Shown: positions 1 to 15,080 of the stretch, piece by piece | How positions within the stretch are numbered: the stretch's first letter is position 1 | Layout: every line of letters begins with the position of its first letter | Source: Streptomyces sp. WMMC940 | Lineage (GTDB): Bacteria; Actinomycetota; Actinomycetes; Streptomycetales; Streptomycetaceae | Assembly (NCBI RefSeq): GCF_027460265.1 | Contig: NZ_JAPZBC010000001.1 | Location: 5,250,001-5,314,000 of the forward strand | Direction of reading: 5' to 3' | DNA: 64,000 bases | Position numbers and translations under genes: made by a program | Notes under the pieces: generated by a model | Database searches by the model: none | What the model saw: the letters and a program-made list of their open reading frames with translations, nothing else | What the model was told of the DNA's origin: nothing

Positions 1-2
1 AT

Positions 3-1334
3 GCCGTCCCGTGGATGAAGCTCGGGAAGATCCCGTCCCTCATCAAGGCGGTCAACCGCACGATCGAGGCCGTCAAGGCCTTCAGGGCGGCCAAGAAGGC
101 TGCCGAGGCCGTGCTGAAGGCGGCCAAGGCAGCCGAGGCAACCGCACTGAAGGCCAAGAAGGCCGCTATCGAGAGGGCCAAGAAGGAGGCCGCCCAAAGA
201 GCGAAGAAGAAGGCCGCGGAAGCCGCCAAGAGAAAGGCCGACGAAGCGGCCGCCGCGAAGCGGAAGACGGGTAACTCCACCCAGAAGCAGTCCCAGGCCA
301 AGGCGGCGCCCAAGTCCTCCTCCCAGCCCGCAGCCGGCAAGGGCGGCGGAAGCAAGAGCTCCGGCGGCGGTGGCGGCGGCAAGTCCGGCGCCTCCTCCCG
401 CAGCAACGGAGGCTCCAGCGGTGGTGGCGGTTCCGGCAAGGCCAGCGGCGGCGGTGGCGGCGGTTCCTGCAGCACGGCCGACAACAGCTTCGTGCCCGGC
501 ACGAAGGTGTTGATGGCCGATGGTTCCACCAAGCCGATCGAGAAGGTCAAGACCGGCGACAAGATCAAGGCGACCGACCCGAGGACCGGGGAGACCCGGA
601 TCGAGACGGTCACCGCGGAGATCAAGGGTCAGGGCCTCAAGCACCTGGTTACCGTCACCATCGATGTCGACGGTGCGGCCGGCTCGAAGACGGCCCAGGT
701 CACCGCGACCGACGGCCACCCCTTCTGGGTCCCCGAACTCGGCAGGTGGATCGACGCCACCGACCTGACATCGGGCGAGTGGCTTCAGACCAGCACCGGT
801 ACCCATGTACAGGTCACCGCCGTCCGGCGGTGGACCGGTCAAGCCGCCAGGGTCCACAACCTGACCGTCTCGGACGTCCACACCTACTACGTGGTGGCGA
901 GCGGTGCCCCGATCCTGGTCCACAACTGTGGAAGGAGCCAGGACGGGTATCTGTACCGCGGTCTTGCCAGGGGTCACAACCGCTACGATGCCGCTGCTGA
1001 AGGCCGTGCGGTTCCCATCGGAGGCAACCGGACCATCGAACAGCACTCGGGTGCAAACCAGACGGACAGCAACTTCACGTCGTGGACGGATGACCCCGAC
1101 ACGGCCGCGGAAAGTGCCCAGACTCTGGGCGAGAACTGGGTTGGGGAAGGTGTGATGCTGCGCATCAGGGTGGCAAACATCGACCCTGCAATCGGGCCGT
1201 CGAGGAATATTCAGATCCACGACACGGAATATGAAAACTGGGGTGAAGACGAGCATCTCATTGTCGGTGAAATCGAGGCCGACGAGATCAGCTTCGACCT
1301 CGGGGAGACCTGGTCACCCGTCAGGCGGAGATGA
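3..1334 (+). CDS. Polymorphic toxin, 3' part: Hint pretoxin domain plus ART-like toxin domain (5' truncated by window)
   Basis: The frame is open to the left edge, so the true start lies outside the window; the first ATG seen is at 15. Counting from that ATG: residues 10-85 are Ala/Lys-rich and probably helical, 100-150 are a Gly/Ser linker, and 152-305 are a Hint (intein-like) autoprocessing domain. The Hint domain has Cys152, a TDGHPF motif (His235) and a closing HNC (303-305). Residues 306-439 are the releasable toxin. YRG (Arg315), FTSWT (Ser356) and EDE (411-413) fit the R-S-E pattern of ADP-ribosyltransferase toxins. Such proteins are exported and cleave off the C-terminal toxin on delivery. 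The Hint call is secure; the ART call is inferred from motifs only. Confidence 0.85.
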   Translation, partial: AVPWMKLGKIPSLIKAVNRTIEAVKAFRAAKKAAEAVLKAAKAAEATALKAKKAAIERAKKEAAQRAKKKAAEAAKRKADEAAAAKRKTGNSTQKQSQAKAAPKSSSQPAAGKGGGSKSSGGGGGGKSGASSRSNGGSSGGGGSGKASGGGGGGSCSTADNSFVPGTKVLMADGSTKPIEKVKTGDKIKATDPRTGETRIETVTAEIKGQGLKHLVTVTIDVDGAAGSKTAQVTATDGHPFWVPELGRWIDATDLTSGEWLQTSTGTHVQVTAVRRWTGQAARVHNLTVSDVHTYYVVASGAPILVHNCGRSQDGYLYRGLARGHNRYDAAAEGRAVPIGGNRTIEQHSGANQTDSNFTSWTDDPDTAAESAQTLGENWVGEGVMLRIRVANIDPAIGPSRNIQIHDTEYENWGEDEHLIVGEIEADEISFDLGETWSPVRRR

Positions 1335-1335
1335 G

Positions 1336-1716
1336 ATGAACGAAGTATCCGCGAGTGAACTGCTCGCCGCATGGGAGTCCGGATCCGAGGTCAGTGTACA
1401 GGCCAAAAATGCACTGCTTTCTGGAGCGCATTTCAACGTCTGGCTCGACCCCGTTCCGGCGCCGAGACTTCGGGGCGTCCTGCGCCGCAGGGTGACAGCC
1501 ACGCAACGGCGCGGCAGGACGGTCGTCGGGGCCACGGAATGCCTTGCGAATCTTGCCGAAATGGGCGAGCGGGGCCTTCTTGTGGGCTACGTGGACGACC
1601 GCGAACGAGCGGGATACTGGTTTCAGCTCTACGTCGATCCGCACCCGCTCAAAGTGATCGGATGCGTCGGGGTCGGCATCTCCCCCGGAGATGACCCCGT
1701 CACTGGTTCCGCATAA
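1336..1716 (+). CDS. Probable immunity protein for the upstream toxin
   Basis: A 126-residue protein starting one base after the toxin stop (TGA 1332-1334, ATG 1336), so the pair is almost certainly co-transcribed and translationally coupled. An in-frame ATG at 1231 lies inside the toxin gene and was rejected. The protein has no signal peptide or membrane segment. It is mixed alpha/beta with a conserved-looking C-terminal half (GYWFQLYVDPHPLKVIG). I recognise no named family. Position directly after a toxin C-terminus and before a strong terminator is the standard arrangement for a cognate immunity protein, which would bind and block the toxin in the cytoplasm. Confidence 0.7.
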   Translation: MNEVSASELLAAWESGSEVSVQAKNALLSGAHFNVWLDPVPAPRLRGVLRRRVTATQRRGRTVVGATECLANLAEMGERGLLVGYVDDRERAGYWFQLYVDPHPLKVIGCVGVGISPGDDPVTGSA

Positions 1717-1720
1717 GGAC

Positions 1721-1767
1721 CCAGCGGCCCCACCGGACCTCTTTCCGGTGGGGCCGCTGGTTTTTTT
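1721..1767 (+). terminator. Strong rho-independent terminator after toxin-immunity pair
   Basis: Perfect 16-bp stem (1721-1736 with 1745-1760), an 8-nt loop, then seven T residues (1761-1767). It starts 5 bases after the immunity stop and is the clearest intrinsic terminator in the window. Confidence 0.95.
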
Positions 1768-1791
1768 GACGGTTGACGGCGGGCTCGCCCC

Positions 1792-2436
1792 TCACCGCCC
1801 CCGCCCCTCCGCCTCCGACCTCAGCCCCTCCTCCATCACCGCCCGCGCGATCGGCGCCGCGTCCCCGCCCCCGCTGATGTCCGTGCGGTTCGCGTCCGCG
1901 TCCTCCACCACCACCGCGACCGCGACCGCCGGCTGGGCCGAGTCCGGGGTCTGGGCCCAGGCGATGAACCAGGCGTAGGGGGTGCCCGTGTTGCCGAGGC
2001 CGTGCTGGGCGGTGCCCGTCTTGCCGCCCACCCGGGCGTCGGAGATGGCGGCGTTGGTGCCGGTGCTGTCTTCGACCGCCGGGCCGCGGCCGTCGAGGCG
2101 TAGCCGGTCACCGGTGCGTACAACGGCCCCTTCGTGTACGTGCGTTGCGTTCCCAGCGCGGCTGCTGTCCACTGTCTAGGGAGCCGGGTTGACCGGATGG
2201 CCGTCCACCACGATCTCGCCGCGCGGCTGGCCCCAGCGCGTGACGGCGATCCGGCGGTTGGCCGGACTGTCGTCCAGCTCGTCCGCCTCCAGGACCATCA
2301 CCCGCGCCGCGTCGACGAGCAGCGCGATGAGCAGGACGAGGAGTCCGCCCGATCCGGATCCAGATCCCGGGAGCGCGTCGCCGCCGCCTGCGCACGGATC
2401 CCGGACCTCGACCCCGAGTGGATCGTCCCCGGCCAC
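1792..2436 (-). pseudogene. Remnant of a class B penicillin-binding protein (PbpA-like) with the middle deleted
   Basis: Read on the minus strand from 2436, the first part encodes a hydrophobic segment (LLVLLIALLVDA) and then NRRIAVTRWGQPRGEIVVDG, the N-terminal signature of PbpA-type transpeptidases. A TAG stop (2176-2178) follows. In the same frame, 2172-1792 encodes the C-terminal end of the transpeptidase domain: GGKTGTAQHG (the KTG box), PYAWFIAWAQ and a DISGGGDAAPIA tail. Intact PbpA is about 480-490 residues; roughly 250-300 central residues, including the SxxK and SxN boxes, are missing. The product cannot be an active enzyme. No partner cell-wall gene lies nearby. Confidence 0.85.
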
Positions 2437-2633
2437 GGACCGCTCATGACCCCGGACGACCTGCGGGGCTACATCACCGCCGGGCCGAGGAGATCACCGA
2501 CCCCGCGCTGCCGCTGTCCTTCTGGGGACTGCTCGACGAGATCCACGGAACGCTGCCCGCAGCCGGACGACTGGAACCGGCCCTGTCCGCCGCCACGCTC
2601 GCCCAGTACGCGCTGATGGAGGAGAACCGCTGA
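2368..2633 (+). pseudogene. Frameshifted remnant: MBL-fold hydrolase fragment joined to an orphan C-terminus
   Basis: One frame carries WIVPGHGPLMTPDDLRGYI (about 2416-2475), the PGHG motif and following helix of metallo-beta-lactamase-fold hydrolases. A different frame then continues with AEEITDPALPLSFWGLLDEI and ends YALMEENR at 2633. No single frame joins the two parts and no N-terminal metal-binding HxHxDH region is visible upstream, which is instead PbpA debris. It is either one gene with a frameshift or a junction of two deletions. Its stop overlaps the ATG of the next gene (TGATG), so the 3' piece was probably once co-translated with it. Confidence 0.5.
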
Positions 2634-3025
2634 TGACCGATGCCGACCACGTCCCGCTCGACAAGTACCAGGCGATGACCGAGGACGAGCTCTACGAGGA
2701 ACTGGGCCTGAGCCTGCTCGGCTCCGGCCCCGGTATGACGCCGGACGACCGGCGTGAGGCCCGCGGCTTCGGACGCGACTGGTTCCACAACCAGTACGAC
2801 CGGATCCGGCACGGCATCTGCCTCCACCCGAAGCTCCAGGGATACCGCAAGGACGGCTCCGACGTCCTGGTCGACGCAGGCGCCGTCTACGGCATCGCCG
2901 GCCACGTGGTCGACGATCCCGTCCAGGCGGCGATCGTCGGCGTGCTGGCCGTGCGCATCGGGCTGACGGTCTTCTGCGCCGGTGTCTCACCCGAGGAACC
3001 CCCTGGCGGGGCCTGCGGCCCCTGA
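2633..3025 (+). CDS. Hypothetical protein, 130 aa
   Basis: The start ATG (2633) overlaps the stop of the preceding remnant by one base. The N-terminal half is acidic and helical (MTEDELYEELGLSLLGSG, then a Trp/Tyr-rich stretch WFHNQYDRIRHGIC). The C-terminal half (about residues 80-115) is hydrophobic and could form one membrane helix or a buried core. I do not recognise the family. The layout of a short charged N-domain and a compact hydrophobic C-domain resembles effector-associated small proteins of Streptomyces, but that is only an impression. With its upstream partner broken, it may be an orphan. Confidence 0.5.
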   Translation: MTDADHVPLDKYQAMTEDELYEELGLSLLGSGPGMTPDDRREARGFGRDWFHNQYDRIRHGICLHPKLQGYRKDGSDVLVDAGAVYGIAGHVVDDPVQAAIVGVLAVRIGLTVFCAGVSPEEPPGGACGP

Positions 3026-3386
3026 CCGGCCGGTACACGGCGGTGCCCGACGGCGGAGCGCGCCGGGACAGGCGGGTGCGGAGTTCCAGCAGCCCGTGGC
3101 TGTGGTCTGCCCCGCGAAGGGGCGCCGGCCGCTCTGCCCGCAGAGGTTGGGACAGGCGATGGCGATCATGAACGTGTGATCCCGAAATGAGTGAGGGCCT
3201 CCTCCCGTCGTCAATGGGGGAGGGCCGTCCACAGTTTCAGGAAACCGGCAGGAACCACGCCCGGATTTCGATAGCGTGACGAATATGCCTGGATCGGGCG
3301 CCCGGGAGGGGTGGCGCCCCGATGGGGGTCGTCGGTGCCCGCAGGCCATCCGGTGACGCATGTGGGGGCAGGGGGCGGACACATCA
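3026..3386 (+). other. Intergenic region upstream of the GTPase operon
   Basis: No gene supported. An imperfect hairpin at 3196-3226 (11-bp arms with one mismatch and two G-T pairs, loop of 9) could be a weak terminator for the hypothetical gene. A patch of lower G+C at about 3263-3288 lies roughly 100 bases before the operon start and is the likeliest place for its promoter; no textbook -35/-10 pair is clear. Confidence 0.4.
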
Positions 3387-5675
3387 GTGGGAAACAACAA
3401 GGAACGACTCGACGCGGTGCTGCGCAGGCGCCGGGAGCATCTTCCCGTGGTTGACGAACAGATCGATCGATGGCGCCAAGTCGGGCGGCTGGTCATGGAA
3501 CTGGGAGCTGCGACCGCGGCTGTCCGCTCGGCCGGCCAGGAGAGCCCGGCGCACGCCGTGCTGGACTCACTGGACACGGCAGCGATGGGACGAGCGGCAC
3601 AGGACTGCCTGGACGTCCTGGCCACCGTCCGCAGCAGGGTGAGCAGGAGCACCGTCAACATCGGCGTGAGCGGCCGCGCCCGCAACGGAAAGAGCACGCT
3701 GCTGCAGTCGCTGTCCGGACTCGACGATCGTCAGATACCGAGCGGCCGCGGCCAGCCCGTGACGGCCGTCCGCAGTCGGATCTACCACTCCGCCACCGAC
3801 CGCGGCGCACGGTTGACGATGCACACCGAAACCTCGTTCATCCAGGACGTGATCGCTCCGTACCACACCGAGCTCGGAATCCAGCCGACGCCGTGCAACC
3901 TGCCGGAGTTCGCGAGCTTCGGCTATCCGCGCCCCGCCGACGGCGTGGGCGGGCCCGACCAGCCCCGGCTGGCACCGATCCTGGCTCGGGTGCGCGAGGC
4001 GCAGGAGGCCCTCGACTCGTACCGGCAGAACCTCACCGGGGAGGTGCGCACCGTGGACCTCTCGGACATCAGGGAGTGGGTGGCCTATCCGGAATCCGGC
4101 CCGGTGCCCGTGAAACGGCCGTACCTGGCGGTCAGGGACGCGGCGATCACGTGCCCTTTCCCCATCGAGGACGTGACCGCGCTGGGGCTTGTGGACATGC
4201 CCGGCCTGGGCGAACTGGTGCCGGAGGCCGAGGCGCACCACCTGGACGGTCTGCGCAACGACGTGGACTTCGTCATCGTCGTCAAGCGGCCCACGGACAC
4301 CAACTCCATGTGGGCGGAGGAGGACGCCCGCGCCCTGCAGTTGATCGGCAGCGTCTGCACCGTGGCCGACGTACGGGACTTCACCCTGGTCCTGGTCAAC
4401 ACGGGCGACTGCCTGCCTGAGAACATCAAGGCCCTCGAGGCCGACCTGCGGGAACGGCTGAACGGCCCGGACACCGACCGGGGTTACTGGGTGGTCCTCG
4501 CGGATGGAGCCGACTCCGACGCCGTGCGCGACGAGGTCCTCCAGCCGGTCCTGGAACACCTGGCGACCGCCCTGCCGCGTATGGACGAGGCGGTCATCGA
4601 GGACGCGGTGGCGGTCTGCCGCGAGCGCAGGGACCGCATCGTGGCGGAACTGGCCGCCTGGTCCGCCACGCTTCGCGCCGTGGCGGTCCCCACCTCCACG
4701 GAACTGACCATCGCCCGCGCCGAGGAACTGCGCGAAGAAGTGGCCGCCTCCCTCCAGGGATGGGTCGACACGCTGCGCGTCCGGGCCGAGGACGACTACG
4801 AGGACACCGAGTTCTCAGAGCGCGTCGGCGAGGTCCACCGGAGTGTCCGTGCATGGGTGCTCAGCGGATTCGGCGAAGGCGCCGAGGCGTGGAGGGAGCG
4901 GGCACTCAAACGCTTCCGCGTGGACCGGGCGTCCCTCCCCTTCGCCTCCGCGGAGCTGAACCGGGTGCGGGTGGAGATGGCGCGCCGTTTCTCGGCCGTG
5001 GACGACCTCCTCATGCGCCGCCAAGACGAGTACTGGGCGGGCCTGGTCGCCGCCCTCGGACCCAGGCTGGCACTGGTCGTCGACGGCACGGCCGACTGCG
5101 CAGCCCCCGGCCGGCCCCAGGACTTCCTGCCGGCCCTGGCCAGGGCCCTTAGGGAGGCGCCTGACCCCTGCCCGGTCCTGGCCGAGACACTCGACTTCGC
5201 GCTGGACGTACGACTCGACTACCGCACCCGAGTGCTGCCCCGGCTGCGTCGCGCCCTGGGTGTGCTGCACCCGGAAACGGACGACCCCTCCAGGGAGAAC
5301 GGCCCCACGACCCTGCTCGCCGTGCCACGGACGGAAGAAGGCGCCGAACTGCTGCTGGAAAGGGTCACCCAGCTGGCCCGGCAGGCCGCGTACGACGCCC
5401 AGGCGGTTCTGGCCCAGGAGCCGGAGACGGCAGCCCAGGCGCTGTTCGCCTACGGCGAGCAGTTCGAGGACGCCTTTGTGCGGTCGGAGTCGTCCCAGGC
5501 CGAGTTCAGGCGCCTTGTGGACGGGTTCCAGGACCGCATGTGGCCTGGCGACGGCGCAGGACCGCAGGCGGCGCCCGCGCAGGTGCGTCGCCTCCGGTCC
5601 CTGGTCGTGGAACTGCGCAACCTGATCATCGACACGGATCCGCGTGCTGTTCCGGCAGGAGGGAGCGGACGTTGA
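3387..5675 (+). CDS. Dynamin-like large GTPase, first gene of a four-gene conflict-type operon
   Basis: Start taken at GTG 3387, which follows a G-rich ribosome binding site (about 3363-3378); the in-frame ATG at 3360 has no clear site before it. The product is about 762 residues. Counted from 3387: residues 1-90 are helical; G1 is GVSGRARNGKS (93-103); a G2 Thr lies near 126; G3 is DMPG (270-273); a G4-like NTGD is at 338-341. A long helical region follows (about 400-760), rich in Glu/Arg and resembling a dynamin stalk. No strong membrane helix is seen. Family knowledge: bacterial dynamin-like proteins bind GTP and remodel or sense membranes, some in phage defence. Its stop overlaps the next start (TTGA). 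Confidence 0.8.
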   Translation: MGNNKERLDAVLRRRREHLPVVDEQIDRWRQVGRLVMELGAATAAVRSAGQESPAHAVLDSLDTAAMGRAAQDCLDVLATVRSRVSRSTVNIGVSGRARNGKSTLLQSLSGLDDRQIPSGRGQPVTAVRSRIYHSATDRGARLTMHTETSFIQDVIAPYHTELGIQPTPCNLPEFASFGYPRPADGVGGPDQPRLAPILARVREAQEALDSYRQNLTGEVRTVDLSDIREWVAYPESGPVPVKRPYLAVRDAAITCPFPIEDVTALGLVDMPGLGELVPEAEAHHLDGLRNDVDFVIVVKRPTDTNSMWAEEDARALQLIGSVCTVADVRDFTLVLVNTGDCLPENIKALEADLRERLNGPDTDRGYWVVLADGADSDAVRDEVLQPVLEHLATALPRMDEAVIEDAVAVCRERRDRIVAELAAWSATLRAVAVPTSTELTIARAEELREEVAASLQGWVDTLRVRAEDDYEDTEFSERVGEVHRSVRAWVLSGFGEGAEAWRERALKRFRVDRASLPFASAELNRVRVEMARRFSAVDDLLMRRQDEYWAGLVAALGPRLALVVDGTADCAAPGRPQDFLPALARALREAPDPCPVLAETLDFALDVRLDYRTRVLPRLRRALGVLHPETDDPSRENGPTTLLAVPRTEEGAELLLERVTQLARQAAYDAQAVLAQEPETAAQALFAYGEQFEDAFVRSESSQAEFRRLVDGFQDRMWPGDGAGPQAAPAQVRRLRSLVVELRNLIIDTDPRAVPAGGSGR

Positions 5676-6826
5676 CGCTGTCATTCAAGGCGTCGATGGT
5701 GGGGCCGTCCAGGGTCGGCAAGACGACTCTGCTCACCGCCATCCTGGCCGAGACCGAGACCATGCTCGCGGGCAGCGGCATCAGCCTCATCATGGACGAG
5801 GCGACCGAGATGAGGGTCCGCAAGAACCGCAAGGACCTACGACGGGCAATCGAGGCACGTGAGTTCGACGCCGCCTCGCTCGGCGGCAGCCAGTCGATGG
5901 CCCTGTACGACGTGGGCCTGCAAGCAGTCGGGGACGACTCGGCAGGGATCCCCTTCAGCATTCTCGACTACCCGGGCGGATGGCTCGACCCCTCCATGCG
6001 CGCCCGCGCGCCCCAGGCCAAGGAGAACTGGGCCGCGTGCGAGGCGCACATCACCGAAAGCCTGATGCTGCTGGTCCCCGTGGAGGCGGCCGTCCTGATG
6101 GAGGCGGTGACCCCGGCGCAGCGCCGGGCGGCAGCCGATCTGCTGGGCTTCGAGGATGTACAGGCGATGGCCCGTAAGTGGGCTCGCGCACGCAACCTGC
6201 CCGAACACCGGGACGAGCCGGCCGTATTGGTGCTCGCCCCGTTGAAGTGCGAGAAGTACTTCGACGACAACGGCGGCAAGGGGCGGGAGGGTGCACGACT
6301 GCGGCAACTGGTGCGGGAGAAGTACAAGACGATCGTCCGCGTGGTGCAGGAGGAGACGAAGAACCGCAGCGTTCGGGTGATCTACGCCCCCATCGACACC
6401 TACGGATGCGTGGACCTGATGGAGGGGGAGTGGATCGAGATGCGCGACGCCGACGGTGATCCCACTCTGGACTTCCGCGGCCACTACCGGTTCCGGGAGA
6501 TACCGCCCGAAGTCAGGCCAAAGGCCGCCGGCACCGTCATGCAGGAGTTGTGCCGGTGCGTCGTCTCCGGCCAGGAAACCATGGAACGGCGGCGGGCCGC
6601 GGCCGCGATGGCCACGTACCAGGCGGCCCTCGAGCGGCAGTCGGAACCGAAGGGGTTCTGGGGGGCGCTGGACTACTACGTCTTCGGTGAGGCGCTGGAG
6701 AACAGGAATACGCGGCTGGGCAGCCAACAGGTCATGACGGAGACCGCGCGCCGCCAGGAGCAGTTGAAGGCCGTGCTGGAGCGGATCGCCAGGGAACCCG
6801 CCGACGAGCGAGTGGAGGAGTGGTGA
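5672..6826 (+). CDS. TRAFAC-type GTPase (DO-GTPase-like) with DYPGG motif
   Basis: The start is TTG 5672, overlapping the previous stop by four bases (TTGA); this places the P-loop at residues 11-18, as expected for the family. No good ATG exists before the P-loop, and an upstream in-frame ATG (5540) lies well inside the first GTPase gene. The protein is 384 residues. GPSRVGKT is the P-loop and FSILDYPGGW (96-105) the switch II/G3 motif. APLKCEK (about 189-195) occupies the G4 position but is not a canonical NKxD. The C-terminus is charged and helical. DYPGG next to a second GTPase recalls the double-GTPase families described in bacterial conflict operons; assignment to a particular Pfam family is not certain. 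Confidence 0.75.
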   Translation: MTLSFKASMVGPSRVGKTTLLTAILAETETMLAGSGISLIMDEATEMRVRKNRKDLRRAIEAREFDAASLGGSQSMALYDVGLQAVGDDSAGIPFSILDYPGGWLDPSMRARAPQAKENWAACEAHITESLMLLVPVEAAVLMEAVTPAQRRAAADLLGFEDVQAMARKWARARNLPEHRDEPAVLVLAPLKCEKYFDDNGGKGREGARLRQLVREKYKTIVRVVQEETKNRSVRVIYAPIDTYGCVDLMEGEWIEMRDADGDPTLDFRGHYRFREIPPEVRPKAAGTVMQELCRCVVSGQETMERRRAAAAMATYQAALERQSEPKGFWGALDYYVFGEALENRNTRLGSQQVMTETARRQEQLKAVLERIAREPADERVEEW

Positions 6827-7629
6827 GAGGTCGGATGCGCGCCCACCTGATGACCCGGGGCACCCTGCGAGGCCAGGACTACACGTTCCTCGGTGAACCT
6901 CCGGCCGAACAATGGTGGGACACGGTCGCCCCCTGGGTCTTCCTGGAGAGCGAGGAACTGATCGTCCGGCGGCGCGGAGGAGACACCACGGGCCTCGTGA
7001 TAAGTGGCATCCCCTCGCGGCGCACCGATGTGCTCGGCACCCGCGTCCGGCACACGGTCGTGGTGAACGAGGCGCACCACGACCGGCAACTCGCTCTGTG
7101 GCTGGTGCGCTGTGGGCTGGATGACAGAGAACGAGGAAGGCTGGGGGAAGTCCTGGACGCCGCCTTCGACGGCGACTTCGTGGACGCCGTCATGTCCGGC
7201 GCGGACGAGGACGTCGAGATCCGGCTGCTCGACGCGCTTCGTCAAGCGGCCGAGGTCGCAGTCGAGGAGGAGACGGAGAAGGACATCACAGGATCGTGGG
7301 CGGGCGCCGTCCACGACGCAGTGGCGACCCGGGCCTTCCTGGCACGCGTCCGGCGCCTGCTGGCGGACGGGGCGCCCGGGTACGCCTTCACGACGCACGC
7401 CCTGGGCAGCCTCGACGGCGTGAAGCGAGTAGCGTCGACACTGCCGGACGACATCGCGGTCCTACTCCACGACAGCGACCTGCGGGGAGTCGAACGGCTG
7501 GGAAAAGCATCCCTCCCGGCACCGCGCCGGGATGGGACCACCAGCGGCAGAAGGACTCGCGCGATGGTGCTGGCGCTCGCCGGTGCGGCGATGGCACTGG
7601 CAGTCTGGTGGCTGATCCGGCAACTCTGA
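6823..7629 (+). CDS. Operon protein C: unknown soluble domain with C-terminal membrane anchor
   Basis: Starts at GTG 6823, overlapping the GTPase stop (GTGA); ATG 6835 with GAGAGG before it is an alternative. About 268 residues. Residues 1-95 form a beta-rich unit (RGTLRGQDYTFLGEPP, then LIVRRRGGD). An acidic helical middle follows (95-225). Residues about 245-262 are one hydrophobic helix (MVLALAGAAMALAVWWLI) with an Arg-rich stretch before it, so the protein is probably tail-anchored with its bulk in the cytoplasm. The family is not recognised. Fixed position after two GTPases suggests a GTPase partner or regulator that ties the complex to the membrane. Confidence 0.65.
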   Translation: MRGRMRAHLMTRGTLRGQDYTFLGEPPAEQWWDTVAPWVFLESEELIVRRRGGDTTGLVISGIPSRRTDVLGTRVRHTVVVNEAHHDRQLALWLVRCGLDDRERGRLGEVLDAAFDGDFVDAVMSGADEDVEIRLLDALRQAAEVAVEEETEKDITGSWAGAVHDAVATRAFLARVRRLLADGAPGYAFTTHALGSLDGVKRVASTLPDDIAVLLHDSDLRGVERLGKASLPAPRRDGTTSGRRTRAMVLALAGAAMALAVWWLIRQL

Positions 7630-8345
7630 TGTCGTCGCTGGCAGCCGAGCTCGAAAGCCCGGAGGACCGCTACACACTGGAGTTCTCCCTTCCAGGGCGG
7701 TCCTTGGCCGCGAAGCGGCGCTACCAGCTCGACGCAGCGATCTTCCTGCCCTTGGTCAAGGGCATCGTGCACCTGGAACGCGGGGCGCGCTTCGTCGAAG
7801 GCCGCGTAGTCCTGCTCGAGCGGCACAGGAAGCCGCATCAGGGCGAGGGATGGCACAAGGGCGAATACGTGTTCACCGTGCAGGGCAGTCCCGAGGAGAT
7901 CCGCGTCGAGTTCGACCTGTCCTTCACAAAGGGACTGGGTGAGGTGATCACCTCCTTCCTGGAAGCTGTCAGCCCGCATGAGTCCGACGACCTGTGCCGC
8001 CGCCTCGCCCGCCTCCTGCTGCGCGTCGATGAGCGAGTGGAACGGGCCGACAGCCTGTGCGACCGACTTGCCGAGGCGGAAGACCCCGCCGGCCGACTGG
8101 CGCATGCCGAAGCCCTGTGGGTCCACGCTCGGCTGCTGCTTCTCATCGGCCAGGACGCAGCGGGCGCGGAACGCGCCGCTGAGGGATCGTCGCAGGTCGC
8201 ACTATCAGGTCTGCCGACCAGCCCCCGTATGTCCCAGTCCGGGGAGGTGCTCGCTTCCGCCCTGAGGTGGTTCCGGCGGAGGGAGGCCGCGGAACGCGTC
8301 AGAAGGTGCCTGCTCGATGCCCCCGCCGACGGAAGGGAAGCCTGA
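7629..8345 (+). CDS. Operon protein D: unknown accessory protein
   Basis: The ATG at 7629 overlaps the previous stop by one base (TGATG). The protein is 238 residues. The N-terminal half is beta-rich with alternating hydrophobics (DAAIFLPLVKGIVHLERG, then GEYVFTVQGS), and the C-terminal half is helical and Arg/Glu-rich (about 115-235). No signal peptide, membrane helix or catalytic motif is visible, and no family is recognised. As the last gene of the overlapping set it is probably made in fixed ratio with the GTPases and may be a structural or sensor subunit. A gene remnant begins soon after the stop. Confidence 0.6.
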   Translation: MSSLAAELESPEDRYTLEFSLPGRSLAAKRRYQLDAAIFLPLVKGIVHLERGARFVEGRVVLLERHRKPHQGEGWHKGEYVFTVQGSPEEIRVEFDLSFTKGLGEVITSFLEAVSPHESDDLCRRLARLLLRVDERVERADSLCDRLAEAEDPAGRLAHAEALWVHARLLLLIGQDAAGAERAAEGSSQVALSGLPTSPRMSQSGEVLASALRWFRRREAAERVRRCLLDAPADGREA

Positions 8346-8433
8346 TCGAGGCGAGCCGGGCCTGACTGCTTGCAGGCGCACGTGTGAAGAAGAGGGGGTG
8401 ACCCAGCCCGAGCGGACCAAGACGCGCTGAGGG

Positions 8434-8860
8434 GTGTGCAGTTTCGTGTCCCTGGGCGACAAGCACGAGGTCAGTGGCAACGACCTGCTCCAGGGTGGGA
8501 GGGCGACGACACGACCGACCTGGCCCTGCTGCACCTGGAGTCGTTCGGCAATCCGCGCGCCTTCACCCGCACCGTCCGCCGCGTCCCCCGGCGGACGCCC
8601 GTCCTCACCGTGGAGGCGGGCCGCTCCGACGCCGGGCGCCGCGCCGCTGCCTCCCACACCGCCGCGGCCGCCACGCCGACGATGACCCGCCAGGCGCTGC
8701 TCACCCAGGCCGGAGTCACCGTCACGCGCACCATCGGTGAACTTCTCGACACCGCAGCCCTGCTGCACTCCCAGCCACTGCCGGCCGGGACCAGGGTGGC
8801 GGTGGTGGTGAACGCGGGCGGTGCCGGCGTACGCACCGAGGCGGGTCCGAGCGTGCCCGA
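8434..8860 (+). pseudogene. Remnant of an NDP-forming acyl-CoA synthetase/ligase-like protein
   Basis: FVSLGDKHEVSGNDLLQ appears in one frame (about 8443-8493). After a shift, another frame continues DLALLHLESFGNPRAF, then VRRVPRRTPVLTVEAGRS, then SHTAAAATPTMTRQALLTQA and ends near VAVVVNAGGAG (about 8820). These are successive motifs of the CoA-ligase domain found in ADP-forming acetyl-CoA synthetase-like proteins, some fused to GNAT acetyltransferases. The N-terminal CoA-binding and C-terminal ATP-grasp parts are absent, so this is roughly 130 residues of a 700-900 residue protein with a frameshift. Its place next to stress-protein genes fits a decayed dormancy-island member. Confidence 0.75.
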
Positions 8861-8918
8861 GCCGCCCGCCGAACTCCGCCGTGCTTCCGGACAGCCGCGG
8901 GCCCCTCGGGCCCTCCGC

Positions 8919-8932
8919 GGGACCTGTGGCCC
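8919..8932 (+). promoter_or_regulatory. Possible DevR/DosR-like box upstream of the first universal stress protein
   Basis: GGGACCTGTGGCCC matches the GGGAC-N4-GNCCC layout of the mycobacterial DosR box. It lies 68 bases before the stress-protein start. The same layout recurs before the response regulator (13106) and the second stress protein (15067). Confidence 0.4.
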
Positions 8933-9000
8933 CTCCTGCTCCGTGTCGGCGCCCGCCACTGTGGCGGCATCACCCCGCTCTCGGACTCGGAGGTCCCCGG

Positions 9001-9879
9001 ATGCCCCGCACCGTAACCGTCGGTCTCGACGGCTCGCGAGAGAGCATGGCGGCCGTCGGCTGGGCCGCGCGGGAGGCGCTCGCGCGCGGTCTGCCGTTGC
9101 GGCTCGTCCATGTCTGGGACTTGGCGCCGGACGTGCACACACCGCTCATCGGTCCGGACACACGGCGCCACTGGGCCGAGCGCACACCGCGCAAGGCCGC
9201 CGAGTGGGTGAGCAGGCACCATCCCGGGCTCGAGGTGGGGACGGTGCAGAAGTGCGGGGAGCCTGCCAAGGCCCTCTGCGAGGCGGCCGAAGAGGCTGAG
9301 CTGCTGGTCCTCGGATCCCGGGGGCTCGGCGCGATCACCGGCTTCGTCGTCGGGTCGGTGTCCTTGGCCGTCGTCGCCCGTACCGGCCGCCCCGTCGTGC
9401 TGGTCCGGAGCCGTGATCTGCAGGTGCCGGCCACCAAGCCCCCGGCGGACGACGGCGACGTCGTGCTCGGATTGGACATCTCCCATCCGTGCGAAAAGCT
9501 GTTGGAGTTCGCATTCGCCCATGCCCACCGGCACGGGGCCGGGTTGCGCGTGGTGCACAGCTGGAACTTTCCCTTGGCCTGGGGTCCGGATGCGGCAGCG
9601 GCAGCCGCTCTGCTCGAGGGCCAGGTGCAGGCGGCGAAGGCGGACGCCCTGGCTGCGGTGCTCCTTCCGTGGCGGCACGAGTTCCCCGAGGTGCAGGTCA
9701 CCGAGGACTGCCGCCTCGGCCGTCCCGCCCACGACCTGCCGGCCGCGGCGCACGATGCCCGCCTCGTCGTGGTCGGACGCCGCAGCCGCACGTCCTCGAT
9801 CGGTGCGCACACCGGCACCGTGACGCATTCCGTCCTGCATCACTGTGCCGCTCCGGTCGCCGTGGTCCCGCGCGACTGA
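9001..9879 (+). CDS. Tandem-domain universal stress protein
   Basis: A 292-residue protein with two UspA-type folds. Domain 1 (3-136) begins TVTVGLDGSRESMAAV and carries the nucleotide-binding loop LGSRGLGAITGFVVGS (104-119). Domain 2 (about 153-290) starts VVLGLDIS and has a degenerate loop VGRRSRTSS (258-266). Tandem Usp proteins of this length typify the DosR dormancy regulon of actinobacteria; they bind ATP and act in hypoxic or stationary-phase survival. The ATG at 9001 is chosen because the Usp beta-strand follows directly. The neighbouring kinase, regulator and second Usp gene support a dormancy role. Confidence 0.9.
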   Translation: MPRTVTVGLDGSRESMAAVGWAAREALARGLPLRLVHVWDLAPDVHTPLIGPDTRRHWAERTPRKAAEWVSRHHPGLEVGTVQKCGEPAKALCEAAEEAELLVLGSRGLGAITGFVVGSVSLAVVARTGRPVVLVRSRDLQVPATKPPADDGDVVLGLDISHPCEKLLEFAFAHAHRHGAGLRVVHSWNFPLAWGPDAAAAAALLEGQVQAAKADALAAVLLPWRHEFPEVQVTEDCRLGRPAHDLPAAAHDARLVVVGRRSRTSSIGAHTGTVTHSVLHHCAAPVAVVPRD

Positions 9880-10078
9880 CGGCACGGCGGACCGGCGCCG
9901 CCGCCCGCCTCCCGCGCAGCGGCGCCGCGCGTGATGTCGCGTCACAGGCGAATGGCCGGGCAGGCCCAGGCGAGGGCAGCACCACGCGGCGCCCATGGGC
10001 CGCGGGCGACCGGGACCGAAGGCCGGCCGTCGCTCGTCCCGCAGAGCCGGTGCCCCAGCCGCCGCTTTTCACCCGTAC

Positions 10079-10092
10079 GGGCCTATAGGCTG
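10079..10092 (+). promoter_or_regulatory. Weak DevR-box-like site before the sensor kinase
   Basis: GGGCCTATAGGCTG contains a perfect 10-bp palindrome GCCTATAGGC (10081-10090), 38 bases before the kinase start. It fits GGGNC-N4-GNCCC except in the last two bases. It could instead be a core promoter element. Confidence 0.3.
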
Positions 10093-10127
10093 ACCGCGGT
10101 CGGCGGGTGAAAGCGGAGGGGAGGCGT

Positions 10128-11852
10128 GTGAGCGTCGAGGAGTCGTTGTCACGTATGCCTCAGATGCGGCTCGACGAGCTGCTCGATGAGCTGCAGGCAC
10201 GCATCGACGCGGCCCGTGGCACGCGCGACCGGGTGCACAGCCTCCTGGAGGTCGTGGTCTCGGTGGGCCGCGAGCTCGATCTCTCCCAGGTGCTGCGGCG
10301 CATCGTGGAAGCCGCCGCGCAGCTGGTCGACGCGCAGTACGCGGCTCTGGGCGTGATCGGCCCGGACGGCCGGACGCTGTCTCAGTTCCTCACCGCGGGA
10401 CTGACGGAGGAGGAGATCGCCCGGATCGGGCCGCTGCCGGCCGGACACGGGCTGCTCGGTGAGTTGATCCGCAACCCCGAGCCCCTCCGCCTCACCGATC
10501 TCGGCGCCCACCCGGCGTCGTACGGTTTCCCCGCGCACCATCCGCCGATGCGTACGTTCCTCGGTGTGCCGATCAGGGTGCGCGAGGAGGTGTTCGGCAA
10601 CCTCTATCTGACCGACAAGCGGGGCGGCCAGGACTTCGACGCCGAGGACGAGGCGGTGATCGCCACGCTCTCCGTGGCCGCCGGTGTGGCCATCGACAAC
10701 GCCCGGCTGTACGAGGCGTCGCAGCGCCAGCAGCGGTGGTTGCAGGCGAACGCGGAGATCACCAAGGGCCTGCTCTCGGGCAAACCCCGGCTCGAGGTCC
10801 TGGAACTGATCGCCCGTCGCGCCCGGGAGATCACCGGCGCCCGCGTCGCTGACGTGTCCGTGCCCGTCACCGGTACCGACGACCTGGTCGTCGAGCTGGC
10901 CATCGGCGGCGACGACGACATGCGCCGGGGCTCGGTGGTGCCGGCCGAAGGCACCCTGTCGGGCGCCGCCTGCCAGGCGGGTACGCCGGTGACCACGGCG
11001 GCACTGGTCGATGATGCCCGCTGCGTGGCAGGATCCCGGCGCTTCGAGGGGCTGGGGCCGGCCGTGGCAGTTCCCCTGGGCACGGCGGCCAAGGACACCC
11101 GGGGAGTCCTGCTCCTGGCACGAGCCGCCGGCGATCCGGTCTTCACCGAGGGCGAGCTGCAGCCCCTGCTGGCCTTCGCCGGACAGGCCGCGCTGGCGCT
11201 GGAGCTGGCCGAGCGCCGACGTGACGCCGAGCAGCTCGCGCTGCTGGAGGACCGCGACCGCATTGCCCGTGACCTGCACGACCTGGCCATCCAACGGCTG
11301 TTCGCCACCGGCATGACACTGCAGAGCGCCGCGCGTCTCGTCGAGCACGCCGGCGCTGCGGAGCGTGTGCAGCGTGCGGTCGGGGACCTGGACGAAACCA
11401 TCAAGATCATCCGTTCCACGATCTTCGGCTTGAGGGCGCGGGAGGACGAGACCGAGCCGAGTCTGCGCGCCCGCGTCGCCCGCGCCGTCGGCGAGGCCGC
11501 AGCGGCGCTGGGATTCCCGCCACGCCTGAGCATGGAGGGCCTGCTGGACACGGACGTCCCTCCCGCGGTGGCCGACCACGTCATGGCAGCTCTCGGTGAA
11601 ACACTGAGCAACGCCGCCCGGCACGCGCGAGCGGCACGCGTGGAGGTCTCCCTGCAGGCCACGGCGAACGAGGTCGTCCTCACCGTGACCGACGACGGAA
11701 AGGGGATACCGGCCGACGGCAGGCGCAGCGGACTGCGCAACCTCGCCGAACGCGCGAGCAGTATGGGCGGCACCCTGGACATCCGTACCCCGGACGGGGG
11801 CGGCAGCAGGCTCATATGGCGGGCCCCGTTCGCCGCCGGCAACGCGGAGTGA
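10128..11852 (+). CDS. DevS/DosT-like GAF-GAF sensor histidine kinase
   Basis: Start taken at GTG 10128, five bases after GGAGGGGA; GTG 10107 is possible but lacks a site. About 574 residues. The order is helical N-terminus (RLDELLDELQARIDAARG), GAF1 (about 45-190), GAF2 (about 205-360), HisKA_3 with RDLHDLAIQRLFATG (His phosphoacceptor) and HATPase_c with LSNAARHARA and DDGKGIPADGRRSGL. This architecture and the opening helix match mycobacterial DevS/DosT and the S. coelicolor OsdK type, which sense O2/NO or redox through the first GAF domain and phosphorylate a NarL-type partner. That partner is probably the regulator at 13196. Haem binding cannot be judged from sequence alone. Confidence 0.9.
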   Translation: MSVEESLSRMPQMRLDELLDELQARIDAARGTRDRVHSLLEVVVSVGRELDLSQVLRRIVEAAAQLVDAQYAALGVIGPDGRTLSQFLTAGLTEEEIARIGPLPAGHGLLGELIRNPEPLRLTDLGAHPASYGFPAHHPPMRTFLGVPIRVREEVFGNLYLTDKRGGQDFDAEDEAVIATLSVAAGVAIDNARLYEASQRQQRWLQANAEITKGLLSGKPRLEVLELIARRAREITGARVADVSVPVTGTDDLVVELAIGGDDDMRRGSVVPAEGTLSGAACQAGTPVTTAALVDDARCVAGSRRFEGLGPAVAVPLGTAAKDTRGVLLLARAAGDPVFTEGELQPLLAFAGQAALALELAERRRDAEQLALLEDRDRIARDLHDLAIQRLFATGMTLQSAARLVEHAGAAERVQRAVGDLDETIKIIRSTIFGLRAREDETEPSLRARVARAVGEAAAALGFPPRLSMEGLLDTDVPPAVADHVMAALGETLSNAARHARAARVEVSLQATANEVVLTVTDDGKGIPADGRRSGLRNLAERASSMGGTLDIRTPDGGGSRLIWRAPFAAGNAE

Positions 11853-11886
11853 AGAGACGGGCGTCCCCGAGGGGGCGGCGCACGGC

Positions 11887-12351
11887 TCAGGCCGTGAGCC
11901 GTGAACCCGTGACCAGGTCGGGCTGGATGCGCACCGCTGCGTTCATCGAGGGGTGCACCACCCACGGACGGAGCCCTGCCGCGTACCGGGCGAGTTCCCC
12001 GGCGTCCGTGACCCGGCGGGCGTAGCCGGTGACGACGACGCTCCAGCCGAGATGGGTGTCGGGGTCGATGACGTCGGCCTCGTAGGCCACGACCACCCCC
12101 GCCTCGTCGTCGGGCGCCGCGATCGAGGAGAGCGTCGCGCATTCGTGCAGCTGGACGATGATGTCCTCGCCGTCCATGAGGTGGTTGACCGGGCGGACGG
12201 CGGGCAGGGCCCGTTCGGTGAAGACGATGCGTCCGAGCGAGACGGTCCCGAGCAGGCCCAGAGCCTCGGCGCGGTCGAGTCGCGTCATACGCCGGGGTGC
12301 CACCGTGAGGCGGCTCCCACCCGTCCGCTGCGTGGCTTGGTCGTCCATCAT
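11887..12351 (-). CDS. Pyridoxamine 5'-phosphate oxidase-like flavin/F420-binding protein
   Basis: A 154-residue protein. ATG 12351 (or the adjacent ATG 12348) follows AAAGGGTGGG on the minus strand; upstream in-frame sequence is low-complexity and rejected. The motif series RLDRAEALGLLGTVSLGRIVF, PAVRPVNHLMDGEDIIVQL, then VVVAYEADVID and GWSVVVTGYARRV is typical of the short split-barrel PNPOx-like proteins abundant in actinomycete dormancy regulons. These bind FMN, FAD or F420 and reduce unknown substrates; they rarely act in vitamin B6 synthesis. It is transcribed towards the kinase gene, and the two stops face each other with 34 bases between. Confidence 0.85.
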   Translation of the reverse strand: MMDDQATQRTGGSRLTVAPRRMTRLDRAEALGLLGTVSLGRIVFTERALPAVRPVNHLMDGEDIIVQLHECATLSSIAAPDDEAGVVVAYEADVIDPDTHLGWSVVVTGYARRVTDAGELARYAAGLRPWVVHPSMNAAVRIQPDLVTGSRLTA

Positions 12352-12539
12352 GCCCACCCTTTGCTCCTGCTCCGTGTCTCGAAGCAGCCCGCCGCCGTGA
12401 CAGCCAGCGTTCCGGAGGGGGTGTTGCGGCGACAGGGCCGAACGGACCCTTCCGGCCGTCCGGTCTCCGGGACGACCAGTGCCGGCACGCCCCGGAGCGG
12501 ACCGTGGGCGGGCAAAGGAGCAGGGGACGGTGTCGTCCA

Positions 12540-12840
12540 CGCCGAGCAGGCGAAGAACGTCGCACAATGGCGCGGCACAGCGCACAGGTGAGGTCGCCCG
12601 CCCGTCGCCGCACAGTGTCGATGCACCCGTACGAACAGGTCGGCTCCTGAGTTGCCCCAGAACATCACGCCCGACGGGTCGAGGCGCAGCTCGCGGGCCA
12701 TACCGACGGCGAAGCAAGCCAGATCCAGGGCGACTTGTCGGCGGTGGCCATGTCGAGCTCCCCGGAGAGGGCGACTGCCGTGGTGCCGTCGTTCGGTGCT
12801 GTCGTGGTCGGGTGACCGGAGCCTGAGTGGGACCTCTCCG
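12540..12840 (-). pseudogene. Degraded STAS-domain (anti-anti-sigma-like) gene
   Basis: On the minus strand one frame gives TTAVALSGELDMATADKSPW, the first strand and helix of a STAS domain. A second frame (from about 12701) gives ELRLDPSGVMFWGNSGADLF, then RVHRHCAATGGRPHLCAVP, which aligns with the usual LDLSGVTFCDSSGLN block and the final strands. At least one frameshift separates the halves and the phosphorylatable DSSG is changed to GNSG. No credible start codon remains. A STAS protein would fit a stress-regulation island, but this copy looks dead. Confidence 0.6.
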
Positions 12841-12850
12841 CCAAGGCGTC

Positions 12851-13105
12851 GCCGGTCGGCTCGGCCGACGCTCGAAAGCCCATCAGCTGAGCGGTCGTGG
12901 CCGGCAGGCCCTCAGGCCCCTGACACAGGGCCGCTGGTCCCTCCGGGCCAGTGACGGCGTCCCAGGGGGAGGCCCGGTGGAGTCCCCCCGCACCAGGGAC
13001 GACGGCGCCGAAGCCGGTCAGTCTCCCTGTGTGTCGGCCATCTGACGGGGTGACGGAGCGACAGGGACGGTCGGCGCAGGGGAGCTTCTCCGGGCAGGGG
13101 AAGCA
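12851..13105 (+). other. Non-coding stretch before the response regulator
   Basis: No gene with convincing family features on either strand; the long open frames here are G+C-driven shadows. It probably holds the regulator's promoter in its right half, next to the motif at 13106. Confidence 0.4.
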
Positions 13106-13119
13106 GGGCCGTTCGACCC
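13106..13119 (+). promoter_or_regulatory. Possible DevR/DosR-like box before the response regulator
   Basis: GGGCCGTTCGACCC fits GGGNC-N4-GNCCC and lies 76 bases before the regulator ATG, a distance compatible with autoregulation. Confidence 0.35.
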
Positions 13120-13195
13120 TGGCCGTCCGGCCCGTACGAGGGCACCATGCAGAGGGTCCGCCCGGCGGACGAACCCAGCCGATACGGAGTGTGTG

Positions 13196-13927
13196 ATGAC
13201 GGACAGCAGTGGCGGACCCATCGAGAAGGGCCCGGTCAGGGTGTTCCTCCTGGACGACCACGAGGTGGTGCGCCGCGGTGTGCACGACCTGCTGGACGCC
13301 GAGCCCGGCCTCACCGTGGTCGGCGAAGCGGCCACCGTCGAACAGGCGCTGGTGCGGGTGCCGGCGCTGCGCCCGCAGGTCGCGGTACTGGACGTGCGCC
13401 TCCCGGACGGCGACGGTGTGAGCGTATGCCGCGAGTTGCGCTCCCGGATGCCCGATCTGGCCTGCCTGATGCTCACCTCGTTCGACGACGAGGAGGCGCT
13501 GCTGGACGCCATCATGGCCGGGGCGTCCGGCTATGTCCTCAAGCAGATCACCGGCACCGACCTCGTCCACGCCGTGCGGACGGTGGCCTCCGGCCAGTCC
13601 ATGCTGGATCCCGGCGCCACGGCCCGTGTGATGGCACGTCTGCGAGGCGATGCCGGGCGGGACGAACAGCCGCAGGGGCTGCCCGCGTTGACCGACCGCG
13701 AGCGGGAGATCCTGGCGCTCGTGGGCGAGGGACTGACCAACCGGGAGATCGGCAAGCAGCTCTACCTGGCGGAGAAGACGGTCAAGAACAACATCTCCCG
13801 GCTGCTGGCCAAGCTGGGTGTGGAGCGGCGGGTACAGGCCGCCGTCATCGCCACGCGGGCACTGGCTGCCCGTGGGGGCCAGGCGGGCCCGGCCTCCCCG
13901 GCGCGTGAGGCCCGCCCGCGGAACTGA
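13196..13927 (+). CDS. DevR/DosR-like NarL-family response regulator
   Basis: ATG 13196 follows GGAG at 13187-13190; the overlapping GTG 13193 is less likely. 243 residues. The receiver domain (14-130) has the DD acidic pair (20-21), phosphoacceptor Asp66 in [12 protein letters not shown], the [20 protein letters not shown] block, and Lys in YVLKQITG. The LuxR-type helix-turn-helix (about 165-220) reads [20 protein letters not shown], then [14 protein letters not shown]. The YVLKQ and [13 protein letters not shown] signatures are those of DevR/DosR. It should be phosphorylated by the GAF-GAF kinase at 10128 and bind the GGGNC-N4-GNCCC sites nearby; the pairing is inferred from position and family. 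Its S. coelicolor counterpart is OsdR-like. Confidence 0.9.
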
Positions 13928-13975
13928 GGCCCCCGTCTCCGTAACCGGAGGCCCCGATCCGCGCCCCGCGCAAGA

Positions 13976-14014
13976 GGCCGACCCCGGTTCCGGAGAGGAA
14001 CCGGGGCGTCGGCC
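13976..14014. terminator. Bidirectional hairpin between the convergent regulator and stress-protein genes
   Basis: A long near-perfect stem (GGCCGACCCCGGTTCC with its complement ending at 14014, one bulge) lies between two stops that face each other. It has no T-run, as is common in Streptomyces. Confidence 0.7.
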
Positions 14015-14107
14015 GTCGGACGAGGGGTGCCGGCAGGGACCAGGCACGGGCCCGTATCGCCGGACCTGGTGCCGGGTGACCCCGGCCCGGAGCGGACGGA
14101 CCGGTAC

Positions 14108-14977: not shown

Positions 14978-15066
14978 GCGATGGCCTCCGTACGCCTCGG
15001 GCGGGCACGACCGCTTCGGCCGCCCCCTGGTACTTCGATCCTCACGGGCCGGGGGCCGTCCGACGA

Positions 15067-15080
15067 GGGCCGGTCGGCCC
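15067..15080 (-). promoter_or_regulatory. Possible DevR/DosR-like box before the second stress protein
   Basis: GGGCCGGTCGGCCC is an exact GGGNC-N4-GNCCC match 90 bases upstream of the minus-strand start at 14977. Confidence 0.35.

What the first reader, a model, noticed from the sequence alone, without database searches (positions are those of the whole stretch)
3387..8345. Four-gene double-GTPase operon as a candidate undescribed conflict or membrane system
Four genes overlap at every junction (TTGA, GTGA, TGATG): a dynamin-like GTPase, a TRAFAC-type GTPase with DYPGG, a tail-anchored protein and a beta/alpha protein with no recognised family. Two GTPases plus a membrane anchor in one translationally locked unit, set beside a toxin module and gene debris, fits a defence or self/non-self system that acts at the membrane. 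Dynamin-like and double-GTPase conflict systems are known; this combination with proteins C and D is not one I can name.
Basis: partly seen in the sequence, partly recalled or inferred. Interest (0 to 1): 0.78.

Follow-up and report, generated by a model that had tools for sequence, protein, structure and literature searches.

The report
Dynamin-plus-GTPase switch operon in Streptomyces
Four overlapping Streptomyces genes (a dynamin-like protein, a second GTPase, a membrane-anchored partner and a fast-changing adaptor) belong to a group that travels together between bacteria and sometimes sits beside suspected cell-killing immune genes, so they may be an undescribed form of bacterial immune switch, though this is untested.

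Summary
In detail: four + strand genes at 3387-8345 with TTGA, GTGA and TGATG junctions. They form a unit. Of 13 genomes with a clear dynamin-like A (whole-genome searches), B lies beside A in 12 and C, by profile, in 11; the twelfth has a C-like gene. The unit is rare (A in 9 of 343 Streptomyces genomes, own included). A and B also lie on a conjugative cyanobacterial plasmid. B is a divergent relative of the DO-GTPases of published 'GTPase-centric' conflict systems: distant kin pass the Pfam cut-off, window B does not, and it lacks the defining Walker-B glutamate. C is not GAP1 by sequence; its model has longin-like topology (weak scores) and a tail anchor. D, a beta domain plus TPR-like helices, evolves fastest and was found in 7 of 26 loci. 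Some neighbours are CHAT caspase-like proteases (4 of 14 Streptomycetaceae loci, 0.06 expected), CATRA, STAND, TIR or patatin genes; other loci show none. The window keeps only the end of a peptidase-like gene that a relative carries whole. Best reading: a dynamin-coupled variant of GTPase-switched conflict systems. Defence activity is untested.

The parts
3387..5675 (+). gene A: dynamin-like large GTPase, 762 aa (GRARNGKS, DMPGLGE)
   Evidence: PF00350 16.9 bits, below the 27 cut-off; the Stanieria homologue scores 34.1 bits, above cut-off
5672..6826 (+). gene B: DO-GTPase2/YcjX-like TRAFAC GTPase, 384 aa (GPSRVGKT, DYPGG, PLKCEKY); start overlaps A stop (TTGA)
   Evidence: PF19993 hit by 9 of 11 family members at E<=0.1, best 9.7e-6; the window member is not among those listed; Aulosira and Nonomuraea B over the cut-off
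6823..7629 (+). gene C: longin-like N-domain (model residues 6-114), alpha/beta C-domain, C-terminal transmembrane helix 241-267; start overlaps B stop (GTGA)
   Evidence: (pLDDT 87.2)
7629..8345 (+). gene D: beta domain (9-96) plus TPR-like helices (about 122-229), 238 aa; start overlaps C stop (TGATG)
   Evidence: (pLDDT 83.5)
2633..3025 (+). small gene upstream of A (130 aa), 86% identical over 122 residues to the gene in the same place in Streptomyces sp. CHD11 (L005); membership of the unit is uncertain
   Evidence: no Pfam family
2466..2632 (+). last 59 codons of an upstream gene that is 456 aa, with an HExxH-type motif, in L005; no match to the rest of that gene was found in window 1-20000
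2478..8366 (+). extent of the block shared with L005 (two pieces, 2478-3010 at 87% and 3236-8366 at 84% nucleotide identity); no further match to L005 in window 1-20000

Best explanation
The operon is a horizontally moving, GTP-driven switch for a conflict (probably anti-phage, cell-suicide-type) response at the cytoplasmic membrane: a dynamin-coupled variant of the GTPase-centric conflict systems. Proposed mechanism. (1) C is held in the membrane by its C-terminal helix, with its longin-like domain in the cytosol, where it acts as regulator and docking site of GTPase B, as longin/roadblock proteins do for other small GTPases. (2) Membrane disturbance or an invader product is sensed by C and/or the dynamin A. 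A assembles on the membrane in a GTP-dependent way and, with B as the second switch, sets a threshold. (3) The switched complex is read by the fast-evolving D, whose beta domain faces the switch and whose TPR-like helices recruit an effector encoded next door: CHAT caspase-like protease, zincin-like peptidase, STAND/TIR or patatin, depending on the locus. (4) The effector stops or kills the infected hyphal compartment. Shown here: the gene unit, its co-occurrence, the family kinships, the predicted folds, the CHAT enrichment and the rate order A,B < C < D. Inferred: steps 1-4 as a mechanism, and phage as the trigger. The window copy is probably switch-only: most of the peptidase-like gene seen in L005 is gone.
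For: Co-occurrence: of 13 genomes found by searching with A, B is beside it in 12 and C in 11 by profile plus one C-like gene. B homology begins at A's stop codon: 16 of 19 loci overlap by exactly 4 nt with the starts I chose. Pairwise distances of A, B and C correlate at r 0.96-0.97 over 18 loci (not corrected for species kinship). Kinship: B to DO-GTPase2. A relatives beside DO-GTPases in Nostoc (DO-GTPase1 40.9 bits, over cut-off) and Stanieria (24.8 bits, below cut-off). Neighbours: CHAT in L008, L009, L030, L032 and L052 (Pfam, over cut-off) and L053 (own profile only); CATRA in L008 and L009; TIR protein in L006; hydrolase with weak STAND hits in L010; nSTAND1-WD40 in L035; patatin in L012. 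CHAT at 4 of 14 Streptomycetaceae loci against 0.06 expected, P about 8e-7 (density). Patchy: A in 9 of 343 Streptomyces genomes; plasmid copies. The A tree splits Streptomyces copies into three clades, one of them with Nonomuraea and the cyanobacteria. Rates: dN/dS A 0.25, B 0.21, C 0.33, D 0.49 against L005.
Confidence: 0.57

Rival explanations
1. Membrane surveillance or repair system without an effector: A and C act directly on damaged membrane, as Bacillus DynA does, and B only times assembly; the effectors next door are hitch-hikers in defence islands.
For: DynA, a membrane-remodelling dynamin, gives phage resistance (PMC8844932, start of abstract seen in the listing). The window has no intact effector yet A-D stay under purifying selection. 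At several loci no effector was noticed.
Against: CHAT genes overlap the operon end or lie in line with it at short distance in L008, L030 and L052 and are enriched. D carries a TPR-like array, as adjacent TPR-CHAT proteins at other loci do.
Confidence: 0.2
2. Housekeeping envelope-stress or polarity module, like YcjX/YcjF of enterobacteria or the GTPase-roadblock conservons of Streptomyces.
For: B has weak YcjX hits (PF04317, 2 of 11 members, best 3e-4). Four overlapping genes with a GTPase and a longin-like protein recall the conservons (recalled).
Against: A is in only 9 of 343 Streptomyces genomes, also on plasmids, with flanking genes mostly unshared and copies split into several clades within one genus. 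No Roadblock, DUF742 or YcjF-type model hit for A-D.
Confidence: 0.1
3. Addiction or inter-bacterial conflict module (plasmid maintenance, kin discrimination, or regulator of the polymorphic toxin upstream).
For: A polymorphic-toxin-like gene ends 2 kb upstream; plasmid copies exist.
Against: The toxin gene lies outside the block shared with L005, and the clustering put it in no family shared with the other loci examined there.
Confidence: 0.07

Closest known systems
DO-GTPase/GAP1 GTPase-centric conflict systems (Kaur et al. 2020, PMC7159879; abstract, passages)
   Same: TRAFAC GTPase of the DO-GTPase superfamily, a second protein encoded just downstream, frequent membrane anchoring, variable neighbours. 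Two cyanobacterial relatives of A lie beside DO-GTPase-type genes (one over, one below cut-off).
   Different: The second GTPase is a dynamin; the word 'dynamin' occurs 0 times in that paper's main text. C is 268 aa, has no GAP1 Pfam hit and is unrelated to GAP1-N2 by profile. No Walker-B glutamate in window B. No FNIII or GASH hit in A-D.
Bacterial dynamin-like defence proteins: DynA of Bacillus (PMC8844932, start of abstract) and LeoA/LeoBC (PADLOC)
   Same: Dynamin-type large GTPase, presumed membrane action. 1 of 14 A relatives hits LeoA (1.1e-5) and 3 of 14 hit LeoBC (best 6.2e-4).
   Different: Window A itself has no hit at that limit. Here it is coupled to a DO-GTPase-like B and a tail-anchored C.
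YcjX (PF04317) of the phage-shock regulon (regulon recalled)
   Same: DYPG-type Walker B (YcjX motif recalled); 2 of 11 B relatives hit PF04317 weakly.
   Different: No YcjF partner model hit; mobile and patchy distribution.
MglA/MglB and Streptomyces conservons (recalled; start of an MglB abstract seen)
   Same: A bacterial GTPase regulated by a longin/roadblock-class partner encoded beside it.
   Different: Different GTPase family; C has a tail anchor and no Roadblock Pfam hit; a dynamin is included.
CATRA / TPR-CHAT systems (CATRA named as a caspase-dependent ternary conflict system in PMC8195603, passage)
   Same: CHAT and CATRA genes lie near A-D in L008 and L009.
   Different: They are neighbours at some loci only; none is in the window unit.

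Membership tests
DO-GTPase conflict system | GTPase matching the DO-GTPase Pfam models above cut-off | tested here: inconclusive
   Window B gives no PF19993/PF19975 hit at E<=1. 9 of 11 family members hit PF19993, best 9.7e-6 (bit scores not shown). Distant relatives in Aulosira (36.4 bits) and Nonomuraea (44 bits) pass the cut-off of 27; the G710 relative (24.1 bits) does not.
DO-GTPase conflict system | Conserved glutamate in Walker B (Kaur et al.) | tested here: not met
   Window DYPGG. Of 17 B genes in which the motif was read, only L010 and L048 have E there (not read by the pattern in L030, L031 and L052). The Stanieria neighbour L050 has it.
DO-GTPase conflict system | GAP1 protein with N, M and C domains downstream | tested here: not met
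   C is 268 aa with no Pfam hit at E<=1; profile comparison with GAP1-N2 gives probability 1.5%; GAP1-N1 was not compared. Both show a b-b-a-b-b-b order, for GAP1-N2 only by eye.
DO-GTPase conflict system | GASH or FNIII component | tested here: inconclusive
   No such Pfam hit in A-D; not every neighbour was scanned.
DO-GTPase conflict system | Variable effectors next to a constant switch | tested here: inconclusive
   CHAT, TIR, STAND-type, patatin and zincin-like genes at some relatives; only a truncated remnant in the window.
Dynamin superfamily | Dynamin_N domain above Pfam cut-off | tested here: inconclusive
   Window A 16.9 bits, cut-off 27; Stanieria A 34.1 bits, over cut-off; G1 and DxPG motifs present.
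Dynamin superfamily | Stalk-mediated self-assembly and membrane binding | not testable with these tools
YcjX/YcjF | YcjX model above cut-off and YcjF partner | tested here: not met
   No PF04317 hit for window B and no YcjF-type hit for A, C or D at E<=1; 2 of 11 B relatives hit PF04317, best 3e-4.
Longin-domain GTPase regulator | Longin fold (b1-b2-a1-b3-b4-b5-a2-a3; order recalled) | tested here: inconclusive
PADLOC-listed anti-phage systems | Match to a PADLOC model | tested here: not met
   Best for A-D: LeoBC 0.031 and PDC-S01 0.028.
Streptomyces conservon | Roadblock, DUF742 and conservon GTPase models | tested here: not met
   None hit in A-D at E<=1.

The most novel reading that the evidence does not exclude
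A previously undescribed immune switch of multicellular bacteria in which a dynamin and a DO-GTPase-like GTPase, regulated by a tail-anchored longin-type protein, convert membrane assault into activation of interchangeable effectors (caspase-like CHAT, zincin, TIR/STAND, phospholipase). It would be a bacterial counterpart, in logic, of longin/Rag-type and dynamin-like (GBP/Mx/IRG) GTPase immunity, shared by actinomycetes and cyanobacteria through plasmids.
Probability: 0.3. Interest if true: 0.85.

Novelty: new variant of a known kind. Interest (0 to 1): 0.63.

Why it matters
The GTPase-centric conflict systems were predicted from genomes, and I know of no worked-out mechanism for them (recalled, not searched). 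A compact four-gene version with a dynamin, a tail anchor and, in relatives, an adjacent caspase-like protease is small enough to reconstitute. If it defends, it would tie dynamin-like and longin-regulated GTPases, both central to eukaryotic membrane traffic and immunity, to one bacterial immune switch.

Tried and rejected
C as a shortened GAP1: not supported by sequence (probability 1.5% to GAP1-N2; GAP1-N1 not compared). A solved GAP1-N2 relative to compare folds with: none in the PDB by profile. Solved relatives of B and C by profile: none convincing for B (best E 0.26), none for C; for A the best is E 0.0083 to a translation factor, mitofusin-2 at 0.018. D and the fourth genes of L028, L029 and L035 as one family: not supported (probability 0.2%), so I do not claim that D is conserved outside the window's clade. 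The toxin upstream as part of the system: set aside, it lies outside the shared block. Phage carriage: no match with B in 50,697 phage records; none in viral contigs with short patterns from B or A.

Hits dropped before counting: 5 of the 14 genomes (E 1.3e-4 to 9.1e-4, fragments of 70-114 residues); 4 of the 7 genomes (E 5.2e-5 to 2.6e-4, short), plus a second short match in the own genome; 1 of the 5 genomes (E 1.7e-4). The first look scores only a few candidates per genome (2 to 12), so absence counts are lower bounds. The phylum search with C found only the own genome in 396; it scored at most 6 candidates a genome and I give it no weight.

Circularity: the C profile (A8) contains the G710 (L031) protein, whose C was not found with the earlier profile, so I count that one as C-like only. 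The D profile was built from the seven loci in which it is found; D was first found there by single-sequence search except in the window itself. The start-stop 4-mer at A's stop (18 of 19) is partly expected by chance, since it needs only TGA after A, G or T.

In print or not: searched, and two papers by word ('dynamin' 0 times in each). Searches failed. The library lacks most subscription journals, so I do not claim the combination is unpublished. The YcjX regulon and motif, the conservons, the longin strand order and the GBP/Mx/IRG comparison are recalled.
Full report
1. Observation. GTG 3387 aligns with the starts chosen for L008 and L009. All four evolve under constraint (dN/dS 0.16-0.71 over three comparisons with the window), so they are genes. 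No Pfam or NCBIfam model passes its cut-off for any of them and PADLOC gives nothing better than E 0.028. It is a Streptomyces: G099, listed as same genus, is identical over the compared stretch to Streptomyces cahuitamycinicus (L009).

2. The genes are one unit. A scan of one genome per species with B gave eight named loci. A, B and C lie together in all eight; D was found in six of them. Searching 343 Streptomyces genomes with A alone reported 14 genomes, of which 9, the own one included, are clear (E<1e-40). For G547, G624 and G573 the fetched stretches (A, B and the start of C) are identical to L005, L006 and L008; the other clear ones were fetched. Adding the clear genomes (G793, G841, G927, G976) gives 13. 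B is beside A in 12 of 13 (in G710 it is weak, 42.6 bits; in G069 a transposase gene, IS110 type by eye, lies between A and B). C is there by profile in 11 of 13; G710 has a C-like gene in place. The exception, G927 (L070), has A next to a kinase-like gene (weak APH/ABC1 hits) and genes I read by eye as PP2C-like and vWA-like (no Pfam hit). Over all 26 loci read (25 with A, one with B-C only), A is found in 25, B in 20, C in 18 (one circular, G710), D in 7. Searched with B, 4 of 150 genomes hit; three of them have A, one (G001, L032) has B-C without A. With the starts I chose, A and B overlap by exactly 4 nt in 16 of 19 loci, by 10 in L030; L029 is interrupted and L048 has a 51-nt gap. Distance matrices of A, B and C correlate at r 0.96-0.97 over 18 loci; this is expected of genes inherited together but is not corrected for species kinship.

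3. It moves. A is in 9 of 343 Streptomyces genomes. An A-B-C operon with a small fourth gene is on a 360-kb linear plasmid of S. aurantiacus. The conjugative plasmid of the cyanobacterium Aulosira laxa NIES-50 has A, B (E 2.7e-13 to the B profile), then a 328-aa protein with a C-terminal hydrophobic segment and a 152-aa gene; that third gene is C-like by position, size and anchor only, not by profile. The A tree splits Streptomyces copies into three clades and joins Nonomuraea and one Streptomyces copy with the cyanobacterial ones (midpoint root and long branches, so details are unsure). Flanking genes are mostly unshared between the loci. The block shared with L005 runs from 2478 to 8366 of the window.

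5. Neighbours. L008: a CHAT gene whose called start overlaps the end of D, and CATRA. L009: two CHAT genes and CATRA. L030: a 140-aa gene, a TPR gene, a CpXC-CHAT gene and another TPR gene in line after C. L052: two TPR-CHAT genes in line before A. L032 (B-C without A): CHAT-WD40, M48 peptidase, and a vWA hit below cut-off. L053 (cyanobacterial, A only): a CHAT-profile hit (E 1.3e-19, own profile). L006: a TIR protein with weak AAA/STAND hits. L010: a hydrolase with weak STAND hits and an FHIPEP hit. L035: nSTAND1-WD40. L012: patatin. L005: a 456-aa gene with HEYAH and a following acidic motif, read by eye as a zincin (no Pfam hit). CHAT genes number 91 in 350 Mb of 41 Streptomyces genomes, so 14 Streptomycetaceae loci should hold 0.06; 4 of 14 do (P about 8e-7; without L032, 3 of 13, P about 4e-5). 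The loci are not fully independent; the density came from a Pfam genome search, the locus hits from Pfam and an own profile run on all ORFs. Apart from CHAT, not every neighbour gene was scanned. In the window only the last 59 codons of the L005-type peptidase-like gene remain, next to a PBP fragment on the other strand; the 130-aa gene after it is open and aligned over 122 of its residues.

6. Interpretation. The kinship of B, the association of A relatives with DO-GTPase-type genes on two cyanobacterial plasmids (Nostoc over cut-off, Stanieria below it), the mobility, the effector neighbours at some loci and the rate order fit the constant-switch/variable-effector pattern described for GTPase-centric conflict systems. 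What differs is the dynamin, the small tail-anchored longin-like partner in place of GAP1, and the lost glutamate. I therefore file it as a new variant of that kind of system, not as a DO-GTPase/GAP1 system. Function at the membrane is likely from the tail anchor and the dynamin. Anti-phage function is the best guess, not shown.

Noticed in passing
window 15-1334 (continues upstream; 1777 aa open in L034): Large polymorphic-toxin-like protein with a pretoxin-HINT domain (PF07591 1.4e-19) and an unassigned C-terminal domain; an open frame of 126 codons at 1336-1713 follows (no Pfam hit) and could be its immunity partner.
   Followed up: partly
window 1795-2172 (-): Fragment of a penicillin-binding protein transpeptidase domain (PF00905), apparently debris at the edge of the shared block.
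   Followed up: partly
window 9001-13924: Universal stress protein, GAF sensor kinase, pyridoxamine-oxidase-like gene and LuxR-type response regulator: looks like a dormancy/stress cluster next to the operon.
   Followed up: partly
L070 8255-13745 (-): A relative of dynamin A in line with kinase-like, PP2C-like and vWA-like genes and no B or C found; PP2C and vWA are readings by eye without Pfam support.
   Followed up: partly
L051 (Nostoc sp. ATCC 53789 plasmid pNsp_h): Relative of A divergently placed beside a cluster with two DO-GTPase-like genes (40.9 and 22.7 bits, cut-off 27) and a gene annotated vWA.
   Followed up: partly
L050 11232-14210 (Stanieria plasmid): 992-aa protein just after a DO-GTPase-like gene and a relative of A; its start reads like a GAP1 N-domain by eye, but there is no Pfam hit.
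   Followed up: no
GAP1-N2 sequences in L036-L047: GAP1-N2 shows, by eye, the same strand/helix order as the longin-like N-domain of C; no profile similarity. Folding GAP1-N2 would test whether GAP1 is a longin-type GTPase regulator.
   Followed up: no
window 46848-46940: ARAGORN calls a 93-base tRNA-Ala (ggc), unusually long; possibly a false call.
   Followed up: no
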